In this document: piece after piece, positions 27 through 4,990 of the stretch
Position numbering within the stretch: position 1 is the stretch's first letter
How the letters are laid out: every line of letters begins with the position of its first letter
Assembly: GCA_016929465.1 (NCBI GenBank)
Contig: JAFGIT010000315.1
Span: forward strand, 1 to 5,450
Length of the DNA: 5,450 nucleotides
Direction: 5' to 3'
Source: JAFGIT01 sp016929465 [NCBI: Candidatus Coatesbacteria bacterium]
GTDB taxonomy: Bacteria > B130-G9
The notes under the pieces: generated by a model
What the model saw: only the letters and a program-made list of their open reading frames with translations
Databases searched by the model: none
Told to the model about the DNA's origin: nothing
Made by a program: the position numbers and the translations under genes

Positions 27-133
27 TGTAGGGGCGATTCACGAATCGCCCAATCTCTATTGATTTCCTTTCCAGATTGCCTTGAATATAGCGCTGACGC
101 CCTCAAGGGCGGTTCGTGAACCGCCCCTATAAG
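27..133. repeat. Paired palindromic REP-like (BIME-like) element
   Basis: Two related palindromes face each other. The left one has 9-bp arms GGGCGATTC (32-40) and GAATCGCCC (43-51) around a 2-nt centre AC. The right one has arms GGGCGGTTC (107-115) and GAACCGCCC (118-126) around GT. The outer flanks are also inverted: TTGTAGGGGCG on the left matches the complement of CGCCCCTATAA on the right. The whole unit therefore behaves like a ~105-bp element with inverted ends and a ~55-bp unique core. Extragenic palindromes of this kind are known as REP/BIME elements and are often mobilised by RAYT transposases, but none is encoded here. The palindromes are seen directly; dispersal through the genome is inferred. 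Confidence 0.75.
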
Positions 134-490: not shown

Positions 491-1168
491 TTGGCATCTG
501 AGCGCATTCTGGTTGTGCCGCGGAGCGTGTTGGCGGAGAAAGTCGCGGTCGAATGGGGGGAGAAATACACTGAATCCATCGGCCCTGTAGCGAAGATCCG
601 CTCCAAAAAGGCCCCCTGCAAGTTCGGGGGAAGGAAGGTGACGGAAGCGGCGCTCGAGGCGGCTGCGGCGGCGTTTCGGTTCGTGGACCGCGATAGCGCG
701 GAAAACGATCCATCGCTGAAGCAGATAATCCCGTACATGATCGTCAGGACAGACTCGGCGATCCTTCTATTGAAGCGGCTTCGGAAGCAATCCGAGCAGC
801 GGCTCTGGGACAAATACTCGATCGGTATCGGGGGCCATCTCAATCCGGCGGACGGCGAGACCGACTTCATGGATATTCTGGAATGCGGCATGGATCGGGA
901 ACTCAACGAAGAGCTGGAGATATTCTTCAGTTTCGAGCCGGAGATCGTGGGCTGCATCAATGACGACGATACCGACGTCGGAAGCGTCCACTTCGGCATC
1001 GTCTATCAGATACACCTGGAAGGTATCATCGTCGGTATCCGAGAGAAGACCAAGATGTCGGGTGAATTCGCGGACCTGAAGCGGCTGGCGGAGGTTCGGG
1101 ACAATATGGAGTCCTGGTCCCAAATCGTCTTCGACCATTTTCTCGCACCGCGAAGGCGAGGTCGATAG
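491..1168 (+). CDS. Nudix (MutT-like) hydrolase, predicted phosphoesterase
   Basis: This 225-residue cytoplasmic protein probably hydrolyses a nucleoside-diphosphate-linked substrate using a divalent metal; the substrate cannot be read from sequence. It resembles the group annotated as MutT-family predicted phosphoesterases, which have an N-terminal extension before the Nudix fold. After the SERILVVPRSVL start, the fold begins near residue 80 (PYMIVRTDSAILLLKR). A GIGGHLNP segment follows at 112-119, then the Nudix box at 122-144 with G122, D128, R136-E137-L138, E140-E141 and I144. The box departs from G-x5-E-x7-REUxEExGU in two places: E is D at 128 and G is E at 143. The metal-binding core RELxEE is intact. 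The start is TTG with a strong ribosome binding site. It ends 2 bp before the methyltransferase start, so the two are probably cotranscribed. Family assignment is firm; substrate is unknown. Confidence 0.9.
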   Translation: MASERILVVPRSVLAEKVAVEWGEKYTESIGPVAKIRSKKAPCKFGGRKVTEAALEAAAAAFRFVDRDSAENDPSLKQIIPYMIVRTDSAILLLKRLRKQSEQRLWDKYSIGIGGHLNPADGETDFMDILECGMDRELNEELEIFFSFEPEIVGCINDDDTDVGSVHFGIVYQIHLEGIIVGIREKTKMSGEFADLKRLAEVRDNMESWSQIVFDHFLAPRRRGR

Positions 1169-1170
1169 GC

Positions 1171-2364
1171 TTGCCGAGTTCGCCAGAGCAAACGGACTCG
1201 CTGCTCGAAGACGGGGCCTGCTGCGTATGCGGCGGCAGAGAGGGGGAGAAGGTCGTCGAGAAGTTGGATGTTGCCATAGGTTCGACCAAATCCAGCTTCG
1301 CTTTCATCAAATGTCCTTCCTGCGGTGTGCTCTACCTCGACCCAAAGCCAAAGGCTGAGAGCCTCGGTCTTCTCTATCCCGATGGAGACTATTACACGAG
1401 GGATTTCGATGCGCTTGCGAATGCGATATCCCATCAGCCGTCAGGCCTGAAGCGTCGGCTTCAGGAGCGGATCATGGGAGCTTATGAGTTCAAAGTTCAA
1501 AGTTCAAGGTTCAAGGCCGGAGGGAGTTCAAAGTTCAAGGTTCAAAGTTCAAAGTCGGAGAGAGTTCAAAGTTCAGAGTTCAAAGTTCAAAGTCCAGAGT
1601 CAGAGTGCCGAGACGCGGAAGGGTTTTGGGGGAGGTTGGTCGATGGAGTGGGGAGGCTTTCGGTTTATCCGATATTGGTTAGGCGGAGCGCCCTTCTCAA
1701 AATGCTTATACACCACCGCCGTTTCTTCCGCTTCGAGAGAAGACCAGCGCGAATCCTCGAGGTTGGCTTCGGGGTCGGCTTTCTACTGCATGCCCTGTCC
1801 CACCTCGACACCGAGCTATACGGAACCGAGATCTCGGAGAAGGCGTGCGATGCGGTCTCTGACCTACTCGGCGTCGATACATTCTGCGGGCATTTCTGGG
1901 ATGCCGGATACCAGGATGGACATTTCGACCTCGTCATATTCTCACACTCGCTGGAGCACCTGTCAGACCCGATGCGGGCCCTGAACGAAGCCCGCAGGAT
2001 AATCTCGCCGACCGGCGGCCTGCTCATAAGCGTCCCCAATCCCGATTGTCTTTCGGCAAGGCTCTTCAGGGAATATTGGACAGGTTACGATTTCCCGAGG
2101 CATCTCTTCCTCTTCGGACATGAGGCGATGTCCAAAATTGCTCAAAAGACTGGCTTTGAGCTGGCAGCGACACAATATCCGGTCGATTTCTCGGTTCACC
2201 ACTTCACCGAGTCAGCCAAGGCGAGATTCGGACGGAGCATCATCCCCGGCTGGCTTAGCAGGTCACTCCCCTTCGAACTACTATATCTGCCGATAAAGCT
2301 CGCGGGAAAGGCCGACGTTATGACGATGTACTTCCGCCCGTCGAGCCAGCCAATGCCCAAATAG
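1171..2364 (+). CDS. SAM-dependent methyltransferase with N-terminal zinc ribbon
   Basis: This is a 397-residue class I methyltransferase. An N-terminal zinc-ribbon-like module has C17/C20 and C48/C51 (CPSCGVLYLDP). The Rossmann fold starts with SAM motif I, ILEVGFGVG (195-203), followed by the acidic residue E220 in YGTEIS. The post-I strand FDLVIFSHSLEHLSDP is at 252-267, and GGLLISVPNP at 282-291. YDFPRHLFLF (306-315) is typical of Methyltransf_23-like proteins that often sit in surface-glycan loci; the acceptor is unknown. The TTG start has GAGGT (1158-1162) 8 nt upstream and is 2 bp after the Nudix stop. Oddly, residues 107-144 (FKVQSS-type low complexity) are encoded by a heptamer DNA array, lengthening the linker between zinc module and catalytic domain. 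Removing that array would leave the frame intact, so the gene may be functional. An alternative is a disrupted gene that happens to stay open. Confidence 0.88.
   Translation: MPSSPEQTDSLLEDGACCVCGGREGEKVVEKLDVAIGSTKSSFAFIKCPSCGVLYLDPKPKAESLGLLYPDGDYYTRDFDALANAISHQPSGLKRRLQERIMGAYEFKVQSSRFKAGGSSKFKVQSSKSERVQSSEFKVQSPESECRDAEGFWGRLVDGVGRLSVYPILVRRSALLKMLIHHRRFFRFERRPARILEVGFGVGFLLHALSHLDTELYGTEISEKACDAVSDLLGVDTFCGHFWDAGYQDGHFDLVIFSHSLEHLSDPMRALNEARRIISPTGGLLISVPNPDCLSARLFREYWTGYDFPRHLFLFGHEAMSKIAQKTGFELAATQYPVDFSVHHFTESAKARFGRSIIPGWLSRSLPFELLYLPIKLAGKADVMTMYFRPSSQPMPK
1489..1602 (+). repeat. In-frame heptamer array, three blocks with 38-bp period, inside the methyltransferase gene
   Basis: Three blocks of four heptamers (TTCAAAG with variants TTCAAGG and TTCAGAG) begin at 1489, 1527 and 1565, exactly 38 bp apart. 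Spacers of 10 bp separate them: CCGGAGGGAG, then TCGGAGAGAG, with a degenerate TCCAGAGTCA after the third. The total is 114 bp, or 38 codons, translated as FKVQSS-like sequence. Because 38 is not a multiple of three, each block is read in a different frame. In this orientation the heptamer contains no stop in any frame, whereas its complement gives TGA in every frame. The array is seen directly; insertion or expansion into a pre-existing gene is inferred. Confidence 0.9.
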
Positions 2365-2367
2365 CCA

Positions 2368-2403
2368 ACTTTGAACTTTGAACCTTGAACTTTGAACTAT
2401 GAA
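2368..2403 (-). repeat. Heptamer array, opposite orientation, between methyltransferase and nucleotidyltransferase genes
   Basis: Five tandem 7-bp units of CTTTGAA type occupy 2369-2403: CTTTGAA twice, CCTTGAA, CTTTGAA and CTATGAA. Positions 2368-2398 are the perfect reverse complement of 1525-1555 in the methyltransferase gene (31 bp), including the variant unit in the same place. The array begins 3 bp after the methyltransferase stop and ends 6 bp before the ATG at 2410, filling the space where a Shine-Dalgarno site would be expected. Confidence 0.9.
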
Positions 2404-2409
2404 CCAACA

Positions 2410-3417
2410 ATGAAAGCAATGCTATTTTGTGCCGGCATAGGCTCTCGGCTTTCGCCGATTACGGATGATATCCCGAAGCCGATGGTCGAGTTCATGGGAA
2501 AGCCACTAATCGATTACACCCTATCCCTGGTCAAAGATTGGGGCGTGCGTGAGATTGCTGTCAACCTGCACCACCACCCGGAGTCGCTAGAGCGTCACCT
2601 GATCGAGGACTGGAGCAACACATTCAAAGTGCGCTTTTCGAGAGAGCGCGTTCTCCTGGGAACTGGTGGCGGACTGAAGGAGGTCGAGAAGTATCTGAAT
2701 GACGGCTCCTTCCTTACCGCTAACGGAGACTTTCTGCTTGATCCATTGCTAGATATTAGCAAAATACTCGAGATGCACTCTAATAACGCTGCAGGGGCTA
2801 CGCTCCTTCTCATCAAGGATGATTCCGGCAGGCACACGCCGATTCAGACTGACACGGAGGGGCGTCTTTCCTATCTCGGCGAGTTGTTAGGTGAATATGA
2901 GGCGAACGCCCCGAGATACTCCTTCTGTGGGCTGCTGATACTCGAGCCGGTTATCTTCGATTACTTGCCGAAGGGAAGGCCATATAGCGTGATAGCCGCG
3001 TGCATCGAGATGCTTAAGCAGGGGCACTTGGTTCAAGGGTATATGCTCGATGGGTATTGGCAGGAATTGGGCGAGACAGAGAGCTACCTAAAGGCTCATT
3101 TCGACCTGCTGAATAGGCAGAGTCCATATCGCTCAATTGTTGAGGATGAAGGCCGGTTCAGCTTCATTCAGGCGGAAAATGACCTCCGCCACCCGTGTTG
3201 CGTGGGTGCCAATATACACTCCGGAGCAGTCATCAGGCCACCGGTTGCGCTGGGTCTTTCCTGCTCCATCAGGGATGGTGGGGTGGTCGGGCCTTTCACG
3301 GTCATCGGGGAAAAAGCTGAGGTCGGTGGTGGGGCGGAATTGAGCCGCACGGTTTTGTGGGGCGGCGTGAGTGTGCCGCGGGGAATTCGGCTCGACGGTG
3401 AAATAGCCTATCGGTAG
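2410..3417 (+). CDS. Sugar-1-phosphate nucleotidyltransferase with C-terminal left-handed beta-helix
   Basis: This cytoplasmic enzyme of 335 residues should join a sugar-1-phosphate to an NTP, giving a nucleotide-sugar and pyrophosphate. It belongs to the mannose-1-phosphate guanylyltransferase / MurU / glucose-1-phosphate thymidylyltransferase group; the exact sugar and base are not decidable. The signature A8-G-I-G-S-R-L with P22-K-P-M (residues 8-25) binds the NTP. LLGTGGGL (82-89) is the base/sugar loop and NGD (105-107) supplies the metal-binding Asp. The usual W-x-D-I-G-T metal site reads W217-Q-E219-L-G-E, a conservative Asp-to-Glu change. From about residue 265 to the end, hexapeptide-like repeats (VGANIHSGAVI, VVGPFTVIGEKAEV) suggest a left-handed beta-helix. 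I chose ATG 2410, which starts directly at MKAMLFCAG; TTG 2392 would add six residues encoded by the repeat. No ribosome binding site is visible. Probably translated from the upstream operon transcript. Confidence 0.88.
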   Translation: MKAMLFCAGIGSRLSPITDDIPKPMVEFMGKPLIDYTLSLVKDWGVREIAVNLHHHPESLERHLIEDWSNTFKVRFSRERVLLGTGGGLKEVEKYLNDGSFLTANGDFLLDPLLDISKILEMHSNNAAGATLLLIKDDSGRHTPIQTDTEGRLSYLGELLGEYEANAPRYSFCGLLILEPVIFDYLPKGRPYSVIAACIEMLKQGHLVQGYMLDGYWQELGETESYLKAHFDLLNRQSPYRSIVEDEGRFSFIQAENDLRHPCCVGANIHSGAVIRPPVALGLSCSIRDGGVVGPFTVIGEKAEVGGGAELSRTVLWGGVSVPRGIRLDGEIAYR

Positions 3418-4137: not shown

Positions 4138-4163
4138 CCCTTCTTCCGGCTGCAGCCGAAGGG
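4138..4163. other. GC-rich hairpin around a 12-bp palindrome
   Basis: CGGCTGCAGCCG (4147-4158) is a perfect palindrome. The outer CCCTT (4138-4142) pairs with AAGGG (4159-4163), leaving a 4-nt bulge. On the minus strand it is followed by ATTTTC, so it could be an imperfect terminator for transcripts running from pyrE. It abuts the first of the three palindromic repeats. Confidence 0.35.
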
Positions 4164-4330
4164 TGGATCAATATTGATCCACTCAGGAGACCTGCCCATA
4201 GCCTGGATCGACTGTACCTTCGACCTATAGGCCGATTTGACAGGTGGGTCAATTTTTGACCCATCCCCCATCAGCGAATTGGATCAAAATCGATCCACTA
4301 CCCTATCTGAGAAGCTATAGGCCGCCGATT
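4163..4330. repeat. Cluster of three related palindromes in a diverged tandem duplication
   Basis: P1 (4163-4182) is a perfect 20-bp palindrome, GTGGATCAAT followed by its complement. P2 (4245-4263) has arms TGGGTCAA and TTGACCCA around TTT. P3 (4280-4297) has arms TGGATC and GATCCA around a 6-nt centre. P1 and P2 differ by a compensatory A-T to G-C pair change. CTATAGGCCG occurs at 4225-4234 after P1 and at 4315-4324 after P3, 90 bp apart. The stretch therefore looks like two diverged copies of an ~80-90 bp unit (palindrome, second half-palindrome or palindrome, CTATAGGCCG). In the first unit the second site survives only as CTGGATCGA near 4203. It fills the gap between pyrE and the secreted-protein gene; no ORF here is convincing. 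Confidence 0.75.
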
Positions 4331-4426: not shown

Positions 4427-4990
4427 TTAGCTGAGCTTCAACGAAGAGAGGGTGAAAATGGACCTGCAATCATACCCCTCGGTGACGAGCTTCTGAGCGC
4501 CTCCCCTCATCTTATCCACCACAGCGAAGACGGCCTTGACGTTCATGCCGAGGCTCTTCGCAGTACGGACAATCCTGAGTGTTGAGGAGCCAGTCGAAAG
4601 AACATCGTCAACGATGACCGCGGACGCGCCTCTTTCCACACAGCCCTCGACCAGGTTATCGGTGCCGAATTCGCTGAGGCTCTTGCGGACGATAAAGCCC
4701 TTAATCGGATGCTTGAAGGGCGGAAGATGCGATATAGCAACCATTGCTCCGATGATCGGATCGGCCCCCAAGGCGCCGCCTCCAGCGAGCGATACATCCA
4801 TCTCCTGCATCCAGTTGACGAAGGTGCCGGCAATCGCATAGAGCGAATCTGGCTCCAAGCACGCCCCCTTGATGTCGATATAGTTCTGACCGCGCGCCCC
4901 CGAAGACAGCACGAAGTCCTTATTGTGGATCTGAAGAGCTGCTATCTTTTGCCTCAGCTCCTCAATAGCCTTTTTGGTGATCGCTGGCAT
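4427..4990 (-). CDS. pyrE: Orotate phosphoribosyltransferase (PyrE-like)
   Basis: This cytoplasmic type I phosphoribosyltransferase of 187 residues should convert orotate and PRPP to orotidine 5'-phosphate in de novo pyrimidine synthesis. Residues 26-40 (FVLSSGARGQNYIDI) match the orotate-binding strand and loop. GGGALGADPIIGAM (70-83) is the next conserved turn. FIVRKSLSEFGTDNLVEG (99-116) is the catalytic loop, and AVIVDDVLSTGSS (124-136) is the PRPP-binding motif with D128-D129. VVDKMRGGAQKL and the C-terminal IFTLSSL also fit. Length agrees with the shorter PyrE form. In the loop, R102 and K103 are kept, but positions usually Lys and His (RKExKxHG in the family) are S106 and F108. This may signal weakened or altered activity, or a relative with another base specificity. 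ATG 4990 has AAGAAAGGA (4997-5005) 6 nt upstream. No other pyrimidine gene is nearby. Confidence 0.85.
   Translation of the reverse strand: MPAITKKAIEELRQKIAALQIHNKDFVLSSGARGQNYIDIKGACLEPDSLYAIAGTFVNWMQEMDVSLAGGGALGADPIIGAMVAISHLPPFKHPIKGFIVRKSLSEFGTDNLVEGCVERGASAVIVDDVLSTGSSTLRIVRTAKSLGMNVKAVFAVVDKMRGGAQKLVTEGYDCRSIFTLSSLKLS

What the first reader, a model, noticed from the sequence alone, without database searches (positions are those of the whole stretch)
1489..1602. Frame-sensitive 38-bp repeat inside a methyltransferase gene: possible phase-variable switch or length-variable linker
Three heptamer blocks start at 1489, 1527 and 1565. Each period is 38 bp, so each copy shifts the frame by two and only a copy number divisible by three keeps the methyltransferase open. 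With three copies the gene is intact (38 extra codons); two or four copies would join the zinc module to a wrong frame. Gain or loss of a single heptamer would also shift frame. Contingency loci with frame-breaking repeats are well known in surface-glycan and methyltransferase genes of pathogens; here the unit is unusually composite (4 x 7 + 10 bp).
Basis: partly seen in the sequence, partly recalled or inferred. Interest (0 to 1): 0.75.

Follow-up and report, generated by a model that had tools for sequence, protein, structure and literature searches.

The report
In-frame heptamer repeat in methyltransferase linker
A stretch of repeated seven-letter DNA, one of dozens scattered through this bacterium's genome, sits in frame inside the join between two parts of a methyltransferase gene; it most likely reads as a spacer peptide rather than an on/off switch.

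Summary
The repeat is real: three ~38-bp copies (30-33 of 38 identical), each four AGTTCAA-type heptamers plus ten bases, in an open 397-codon gene. It is not private to the gene: the same heptamer forms at least 28 arrays on 24 contigs of this genome. By my gene caller 18 are intergenic, 8 overlap a gene end, and 2 lie inside an ORF: this one and one in an ORF tail. The three orthologues held from this phylum have a shorter, non-repetitive linker there, with cysteine-rich and methyltransferase parts conserved on both sides. So the array is an in-frame linker segment. On the coding strand GTTCAAA reads SSKFKVQ in every frame without stops; the other strand gives TGA in every frame. Elsewhere the same heptamer sits in frame inside conserved enzymes (TopA, GAPDH, AspRS, TsaD), where solved homologues show 7-12 residue gaps; switching those off would presumably be lethal. 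No frame-broken (OFF) gene was recognised among 93 arrays (four cases undecided). Phase variation is unsupported but not excluded: no second strain or reads were examined. Heptamer arrays, including some in ORFs, are already described; this is a new member of that kind.

The parts
1486..1602 (+). Heptamer array: three ~38-bp copies, each four AGTTCAA-type heptamers plus a 10-bp spacer; translated as EFKVQSSRFKAGGSSKFKVQSSKSERVQSSEFKVQ
   Evidence: TRF; copy identities; peptide
1171..2364 (+). Methyltransferase ORF, 397 codons, open through the array
   Evidence: the ORF listing; Pfam Methyltransf_23 3e-20 at residues 183-332
1219..1323 (+). N-terminal CxxC...CxxC zinc-ribbon-like module (residues 17-51), 5' of the array
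   Evidence: cysteines invariant in two orthologues and seen in the third; no Pfam hit; 'zinc ribbon' is inferred from the motif
1717..2166 (+). Class I SAM-dependent methyltransferase domain, 3' of the array, same frame
   Evidence: Pfam; weak solved homologues (best 3cc8, 6.5e-09)
2367..2404 (-). Second array of the same heptamer, opposite orientation, between the methyltransferase stop (2362-2364) and the next gene
   Evidence: TRF
1525..1558 (+). Arm of a 34-nt, 97% complementary inverted repeat with 2365-2398
   Evidence: the repeat finder
2365..2398 (-). Other arm of that inverted repeat
   Evidence: the repeat finder
2410..3417 (+). Nucleotidyltransferase (NTP_transferase) gene, likely ATG at 2410 just after the second array
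   Evidence: Pfam 1.3e-22; start matched by eye to orthologous downstream sequence printed
491..1168 (+). Upstream gene (225 codons), Nudix-like by eye only
   Evidence: ORF; no Pfam hit at 1e-3; family name from memory

Best explanation
The feature is a translated, in-frame member of a genome-wide family of GTTCAAA heptamer microsatellites. It sits in the poorly conserved linker between an N-terminal zinc-ribbon-like module and a class I methyltransferase domain. Shown: the reading frame is open through the array, both flanking modules are conserved in three orthologues, the orthologues have non-repetitive linkers there, and the same heptamer recurs in at least 28 arrays in this genome while the 14-base pattern AGTTCAAAGTTCAA is absent from the three relatives. 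Inferred: heptamers arise and grow by local tandem duplication (slippage or unequal exchange), and a second round duplicated a 38-bp block. The array survives inside a gene only because (i) on this strand GTTCAAA gives the same stop-free seven codons (SSKFKVQ) in all frames, since 7 = 1 mod 3, whereas the other strand gives TGA in every frame; (ii) the host segment is a tolerant linker; and (iii) purifying selection keeps only net lengths divisible by three. It works as a spacer peptide and is not used as a switch.
For: Own genome: AGTTCAAAGTTCAA 39 exact hits against 0 for the reversed control; GTTCNNNGTTCNNNGTTC 88 against 4. 28 arrays on 24 contigs after two chance-like loci (L108, L110) were dropped. 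By my gene caller 18 of 28 are intergenic, 8 overlap an end of a called gene, and 2 lie inside an ORF: this one and one at a C-terminal tail, L119. The three relatives, which are the rest of the phylum held, have 0 hits of the 14-mer and of the 19-mer and a shorter unrelated linker. Other bacteria: 24 of 93 arrays in 80 loci lie in ORFs with at least 60 codons on both sides, all in the stop-free orientation; 260 of 279 forward frames are open through the array against 12 of 279 reverse. In 12 of these 24 ORFs the array is inside or between Pfam domains (L198). In 4 of 4 of these that I compared with solved homologues (TopA, GAPDH, AspRS, TsaD) an alignment gap falls on the heptamer peptide (10, 7, 10, 12 residues).
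Against: No second strain, reads or protein data: neither constancy of length nor translation is shown directly. The orthologues are only 49-58% identical over the aligned halves, so the ancestral linker is unknown and 'insertion' could be 'replacement'. A structure prediction was uninformative (mean pLDDT 37, single sequence), so linker flexibility is inferred from the alignment. The genome is a fragmented draft (423 contigs, 86% complete); the array length could be mis-assembled. The GAPDH and TsaD alignments open further gaps away from the heptamers, so those proteins are loop-rich anyway. I did not compare the other bacteria's genes with close relatives lacking the array. The methyltransferase domain might be restarted internally (in-frame GTG 1648, ATG 1702), which would relax the frame constraint.
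Confidence: 0.82

Rival explanations
1. Phase-variable contingency locus: slippage of heptamers or recombination of 38-bp copies flips the methyltransferase ON and OFF.
For: Every 7- or 38-bp step shifts the frame, and all four simulated steps truncate the protein at 157-283 of 397 residues. The gene lies next to a nucleotidyltransferase gene, so a glycan role is conceivable. Heptanucleotide phase variation exists: papers on phase-variable NeuO of E. coli K1 hold the term (search listing and abstract start only; details recalled).
Against: Longest perfect period-7 run is only 21 bp. The family is mostly intergenic. The same heptamer is found in frame in conserved enzymes elsewhere. Among 93 arrays elsewhere 5 had long open flanks only in different frames; one is two complete genes and four have no Pfam family on either side, so none is a recognised OFF gene.
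Confidence: 0.07
2. A dispersed, possibly horizontally spread heptamer element that inserts preferentially into linkers and surface loops, comparable with the in-frame palindromic elements of Rickettsia (recalled).
For: It coincides with alignment gaps in 4 of 4 enzymes compared. In this genome 12 of 28 arrays are followed by the same end variant AARGTTG, against 5 of 93 elsewhere, which could be a defined end.
Against: AGTTCAA is not special among heptamers: 4-unit scans of viral contigs gave 12 stretches for it against 7, 27, 0 and 30 for four others; 7 of 386 genomes, this one included, against 2 of 386 for its reversed control. The window genome carries other heptamer families too. By eye the 5' flanks agree only among paralogous loci. 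Target-site duplications were not tested.
Confidence: 0.08
3. The in-gene and the inverted downstream array pair in the mRNA (34 nt, 97% complementary) and control stability or translation of the methyltransferase-nucleotidyltransferase pair.
For: Inverted repeat 1525-1558 / 2365-2398; the second array ends 5 bp before the likely start of the next gene (2410).
Against: Any two opposite arrays of one heptamer family are complementary by construction; the loop would be about 800 nt and occupied by ribosomes; no heptamer array is seen in the orthologous downstream sequences printed.
Confidence: 0.03

Closest known systems
TAACTGA heptanucleotide direct repeats of marine Beggiatoaceae (PMC4679880; abstract, passages and section 15 seen)
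   Same: Heptamer arrays dispersed through a genome, mostly intergenic, also in scattered unrelated phyla; one orientation has stops in all frames, so internal ORF copies occur only in the other (LSVISYQ peptide there, SSKFKVQ here); some arrays overlap stop codons of upstream genes.
   Different: Different heptamer; Beggiatoaceae arrays sit mainly upstream of start codons and in ORFs mostly at the periphery; here one lies between two conserved modules, and elsewhere inside domains of conserved enzymes.
GGGAATC / GGGGA(T/C)T heptamers of Xanthomonas and Nostoc (PMC4692102; passages seen)
   Same: Dispersed heptamer simple sequence repeats, mostly intergenic, often within 50 bp of a stop codon.
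   Different: G-rich, quadruplex-forming; not GTTCAAA.
Tandem repeats in Borg elements (PMC9879509; passages seen)
   Same: In-gene tandem repeats that keep frame and give commonly disordered peptide segments.
   Different: Borg in-gene units are all divisible by three and virtually all unique; here the unit is 7 (or 38) and shared across the genome.
Heptanucleotide phase variation such as neuO of E. coli K1 (PMC9659370, PMC13001214; search listing and abstract start only, rest recalled)
   Same: Seven-base unit, frame-sensitive, in a gene.
   Different: Phase variation is reported there; here the tract is impure and switching is untested.

Membership tests
Dispersed heptanucleotide simple sequence repeats | Seven-base tandem unit | tested here: met
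   TRF period 7 x 14.4
Dispersed heptanucleotide simple sequence repeats | Same unit at many places in one genome, mostly intergenic | tested here: met
   28 arrays on 24 contigs; 18 of 28 intergenic, 8 overlap an end of a called gene
Dispersed heptanucleotide simple sequence repeats | Copies inside ORFs only in the stop-free orientation | tested here: met
   24 of 24 in-ORF arrays of other bacteria forward
Phase-variable contingency locus | Repeat number shifts the reading frame | tested here: met
   Simulated unit changes truncate
Phase-variable contingency locus | Pure tract long enough for frequent slippage | tested here: inconclusive
   Longest perfect period-7 run 21 bp, impure array; I know of no set threshold for heptamers
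Phase-variable contingency locus | Length varies between cells or strains | not testable with these tools
Phase-variable contingency locus | OFF alleles exist | tested here: inconclusive
   Not testable at this locus; among 93 arrays elsewhere 0 recognised OFF genes in 5 candidates, 4 of them undecided
Mobile in-frame insertion element (Rickettsia type, recalled) | Conserved element with defined ends | tested here: inconclusive
   5' flanks shared only among paralogous loci by eye; but 12 of 28 arrays are followed by AARGTTG
Mobile in-frame insertion element (Rickettsia type, recalled) | Target-site duplication or empty site | not tested
   Orthologues too distant for an empty site

The most novel reading that the evidence does not exclude
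Heptamer microsatellites, with units not divisible by three, are a recurrent source of new in-frame loop and linker peptides across bacterial phyla. The same SSKFKVQ-type peptide entered the same kind of site (loops of housekeeping enzymes and interdomain linkers) in many lineages, either by spread of one heptamer element or by a shared replication mechanism that favours this unit.
Probability: 0.2. Interest if true: 0.65.

Novelty: new member of a known kind. Interest (0 to 1): 0.36.

Why it matters
It weakens a tempting phase-variation story and offers a general caution: a frame-shifting repeat inside a gene is not evidence of switching when the same repeat litters the genome and sits in frame in housekeeping genes elsewhere. 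The cross-phylum set of heptamer peptides inside topoisomerase, GAPDH and tRNA synthetases gives a concrete collection for asking how microsatellites create protein loops and why units of seven are favoured.

Tried and rejected
Paper searches for the repeat letters and for the peptide SSKFKVQ returned nothing; a search for 'heptamer repeats' with 'Patescibacteria' returned nothing. That is a statement about those searches in that library only.

Structure prediction of the window protein without an alignment was useless (mean pLDDT 37). A scan for viral relatives to build an alignment gave three short matches and was dropped. A plasmid search found only distant methyltransferases (22 records, none covering 80% of the query).

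A mobile element with fixed ends was considered. By eye the 5' flanks align only among paralogous genes (L098, L111, L113, L114, and L109 with the two of L115) and are otherwise unrelated. Against this, 12 of 28 arrays end in the variant unit AARGTTG (5 of 93 elsewhere); I keep the mobile reading at low odds. AGTTCAA as a uniquely favoured heptamer was weakened by comparison heptamers. An OFF allele in L173 was considered: 514 and 486 open codons in different frames turned out to be two complete genes, a helicase and RmuC, with the array beginning at the TAG stop. The other four different-frame cases had no Pfam family on either side and are undecided.

Rows dropped before counts: L108 and L110 in the own-genome array set (units unlike GTTCAAR). 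L101, L105 and L123 (contigs 61, 111, 418) hold AGTTCAA arrays by TRF that my two-dimer rule missed, so 28 is a lower bound. Of the 24 in-ORF arrays elsewhere, 12 are inside or between Pfam domains (for L177 the output does not locate the second Epimerase stretch); 6 are outside or at the border of a domain (L138, L146, L166, L167, L183, L210); 5 have no family (L145, L157, L186, L198, L206); and 1 (L147, Hsp90) is probably upstream of the start. The four enzymes compared with solved structures, 4 of those 12, were chosen by me as clear housekeeping genes.

Full report
WHAT IS THERE. The array is real. Tandem Repeats Finder gives period 38 x 2.9 at 1486-1594 and period 7 x 14.4 at 1487-1593. 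The three 38-bp copies share 30-33 of 38 bases, and GTTCNNNGTTC occurs 13 times in the window against a mean of 0.13 and a maximum of 2 in 500 shuffles. It lies in a 397-codon ORF, 1171-2364. Residues 183-332 match Methyltransf_23 at 3e-20. The N-terminal part has CxxC...CxxC cysteines invariant in two orthologues and present in the third; no Pfam family was hit there, so 'zinc ribbon' is my reading of the motif. A second array of the same heptamer, in the opposite orientation, lies at 2367-2404 between this gene and a nucleotidyltransferase gene; the two arrays form a 34-nt, 97% complementary inverted repeat.

IT IS A GENOME-WIDE FAMILY. The window is contig 37 of a 423-contig draft of 3.19 Mb. 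AGTTCAAAGTTCAA occurs 39 times there and its reversed control 0 times; GTTCNNNGTTCNNNGTTC occurs 88 times and its control 4. I fetched 28 further contigs or parts of them. Under one rule (at least two heptamer dimers), 28 arrays on 24 contigs remain after dropping L108 and L110; TRF finds AGTTCAA arrays in three more contigs that the rule missed. A simple hexamer-based gene caller places 18 of 28 between genes, 8 overlapping an end of a called gene and 2 inside an ORF: the window array and one at the C-terminal tail of L119. In 6 of 28 the array starts at or next to the stop codon of a gene on the same strand (L098, L107, L113, L114 and both of L116). In 12 of 28 the unit after the last GTTC is AARGTTG. 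Other heptamer families are present too: 17-mers of CCGCAAT and GCCAACT gave 8 and 10 exact hits against 0 for controls. In twenty other contigs (1-21 without 12, which had been fetched for its array; 142 kb), 1 of 10 tandem arrays had period 7 and none was GTTCAAA.

ORTHOLOGUES. Only four genomes of this phylum are held. The three relatives have no AGTTCAAAGTTCAA and all carry the methyltransferase (56-58% identity over the C-terminal part, 49-53% over the N-terminal part), each followed by a nucleotidyltransferase-like sequence (read by eye). Between the conserved halves the window has 47-51 residues where G001, G003 and G002 have 22, 26 and 9 (intervals). The replacements are non-repetitive; those of G001 and G003, one genus, resemble each other, that of G002 does not. 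So the array occupies a tolerant linker, both halves are read in one frame, and the array must be translated if the whole gene is. The ancestral linker cannot be told at this distance.

WHY A SEVEN-BASE UNIT CAN LIVE IN A GENE. Because 7 leaves 1 modulo 3, a tandem heptamer reads the same seven codons in every frame. GTTCAAA gives SSKFKVQ without a stop; its complement gives TGA in every frame (read from the sequence). Twenty-four of the 93 lie in ORFs with at least 60 codons on both sides, all in the open orientation.

THE SAME HEPTAMER INSIDE CONSERVED GENES. Of those 24 ORFs, 12 have the array inside or between Pfam domains: an undecaprenyl diphosphate synthase, TrpE-like, GH2, a PP-loop ATPase, TsaD, ATP-dependent DNA ligase, a leucyl-tRNA synthetase, a sugar epimerase, a class II tRNA synthetase, a polyprenyl synthetase, GAPDH and TopA. 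Six have it outside or at the border of a domain, five have no family (L198) and one (Hsp90) probably lies before the start. I compared 4 of the 12 with solved structures: TopA, AspRS (the class II synthetase), GAPDH and TsaD. In each the best alignment opens a gap of 10, 10, 7 and 12 residues on the heptamer peptide; GAPDH and TsaD also have other gaps. I read these as in-frame loop insertions. The gaps need not be multiples of seven residues; only the frame is kept. Eight of the 12 come from records named for candidate phyla that I place in Patescibacteria from memory.

IS IT A SWITCH? The expected signs of switching are missing. The longest perfect period-7 run is 21 bp, whereas intergenic arrays in the same genome reach 57 bp. 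The heptamer is found in frame in enzymes that a cell can hardly switch off. Searching for frame-broken genes, 29 of 93 arrays had at least 60 open codons on both sides: 24 in the same frame and 5 only in different frames. The strongest of the 5 is two complete genes; the other four have no recognisable family on either side. Own genome: 5 same-frame and 0 different-frame of 28. The 5 are the window, L106, L117, L122 and L113; in L113 a stop interrupts the frame at the array, between two genes, and the ORFs of L106, L117 and L122 have no Pfam family. I could not examine reads or a second strain, so absence of switching is inferred. An internal start (GTG 1648 or ATG 1702) could rescue the methyltransferase domain; untested.

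IS THE HEPTAMER SPECIAL? Record titles span many phyla, which invites a mobile or horizontally spread element. Comparison heptamers temper this: viral contigs gave 12 stretches for AGTTCAA x4 against 7, 27, 0 and 30 for four others, and 7 of 386 genomes, this one included, have AGTTCAAAGTTCAAAGTTC against 2 of 386 for its reverse. No comparison heptamer was scanned in the GTDB contigs. Heptamer arrays of many other sequences occur in the same loci.

WHAT IS KNOWN. Dispersed heptanucleotide repeats are described: TAACTGA in Beggiatoaceae, with internal in-ORF copies only in the stop-free orientation (PMC4679880, abstract, passages and section 15 seen), and GGGAATC in Xanthomonas and Nostoc (PMC4692102, passages seen). 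Both cite a 2007 survey in which heptamers are over-represented; I did not read that survey. Borg elements carry in-gene repeats that keep frame, all with units divisible by three (PMC9879509, passages seen). The window array is a new member of the heptamer kind. What I did not find in those passages is the same heptamer inside domains of housekeeping enzymes; in-ORF copies there were mostly peripheral.

VERDICT. Observation confirmed, interpretation half right: a length-variable, in-frame linker segment, not a demonstrated switch.

Noticed in passing
window 32-51 and 107-126: Two related 20-nt near-palindromes (GGGCGATTCACGAATCGCCC and GGGCGGTTCGTGAACCGCCC), REP-like, near the start of the contig.
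   Followed up: no
window 4163-4182, with similar sites near 4244 and 4298: A perfect 20-nt palindrome GTGGATCAATATTGATCCAC and two imperfect look-alikes seen by eye, near a phosphoribosyltransferase-like gene (4427-4990, minus strand; weak Pfam hit below its cut-off).
   Followed up: no
28 own-genome arrays (window and L096-L122): 12 of 28 arrays are followed by the variant unit AARGTTG, against 5 of 93 arrays from other bacteria: a possible shared 3' end in this genome.
   Followed up: partly
L098, L111, L113, L114 at their arrays: Paralogous sequence coding for a shared C-terminus ending TQKLIGPIDRKFES is followed directly by GTTCAAA arrays (L111 by its DNA only); gene end and array were probably duplicated together.
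   Followed up: partly
L132, L135, L141, L142, L143, L162, L169, L177, L181, L196, L203, L211: In-frame GTTCAAA heptamer peptides inside or between domains of conserved enzymes in other bacteria; 8 of 12 from records of candidate phyla that I place in Patescibacteria from memory.
   Followed up: partly
L114, L115, L118, L122 (and L121 by eye): Different heptamer families (CCGCAAT, GCCAACT) stand near GTTCAAA arrays.
   Followed up: partly
window 491-1168: Upstream gene without a Pfam hit; Nudix-like by eye (GGHLNP, ELNEEL).
   Followed up: no
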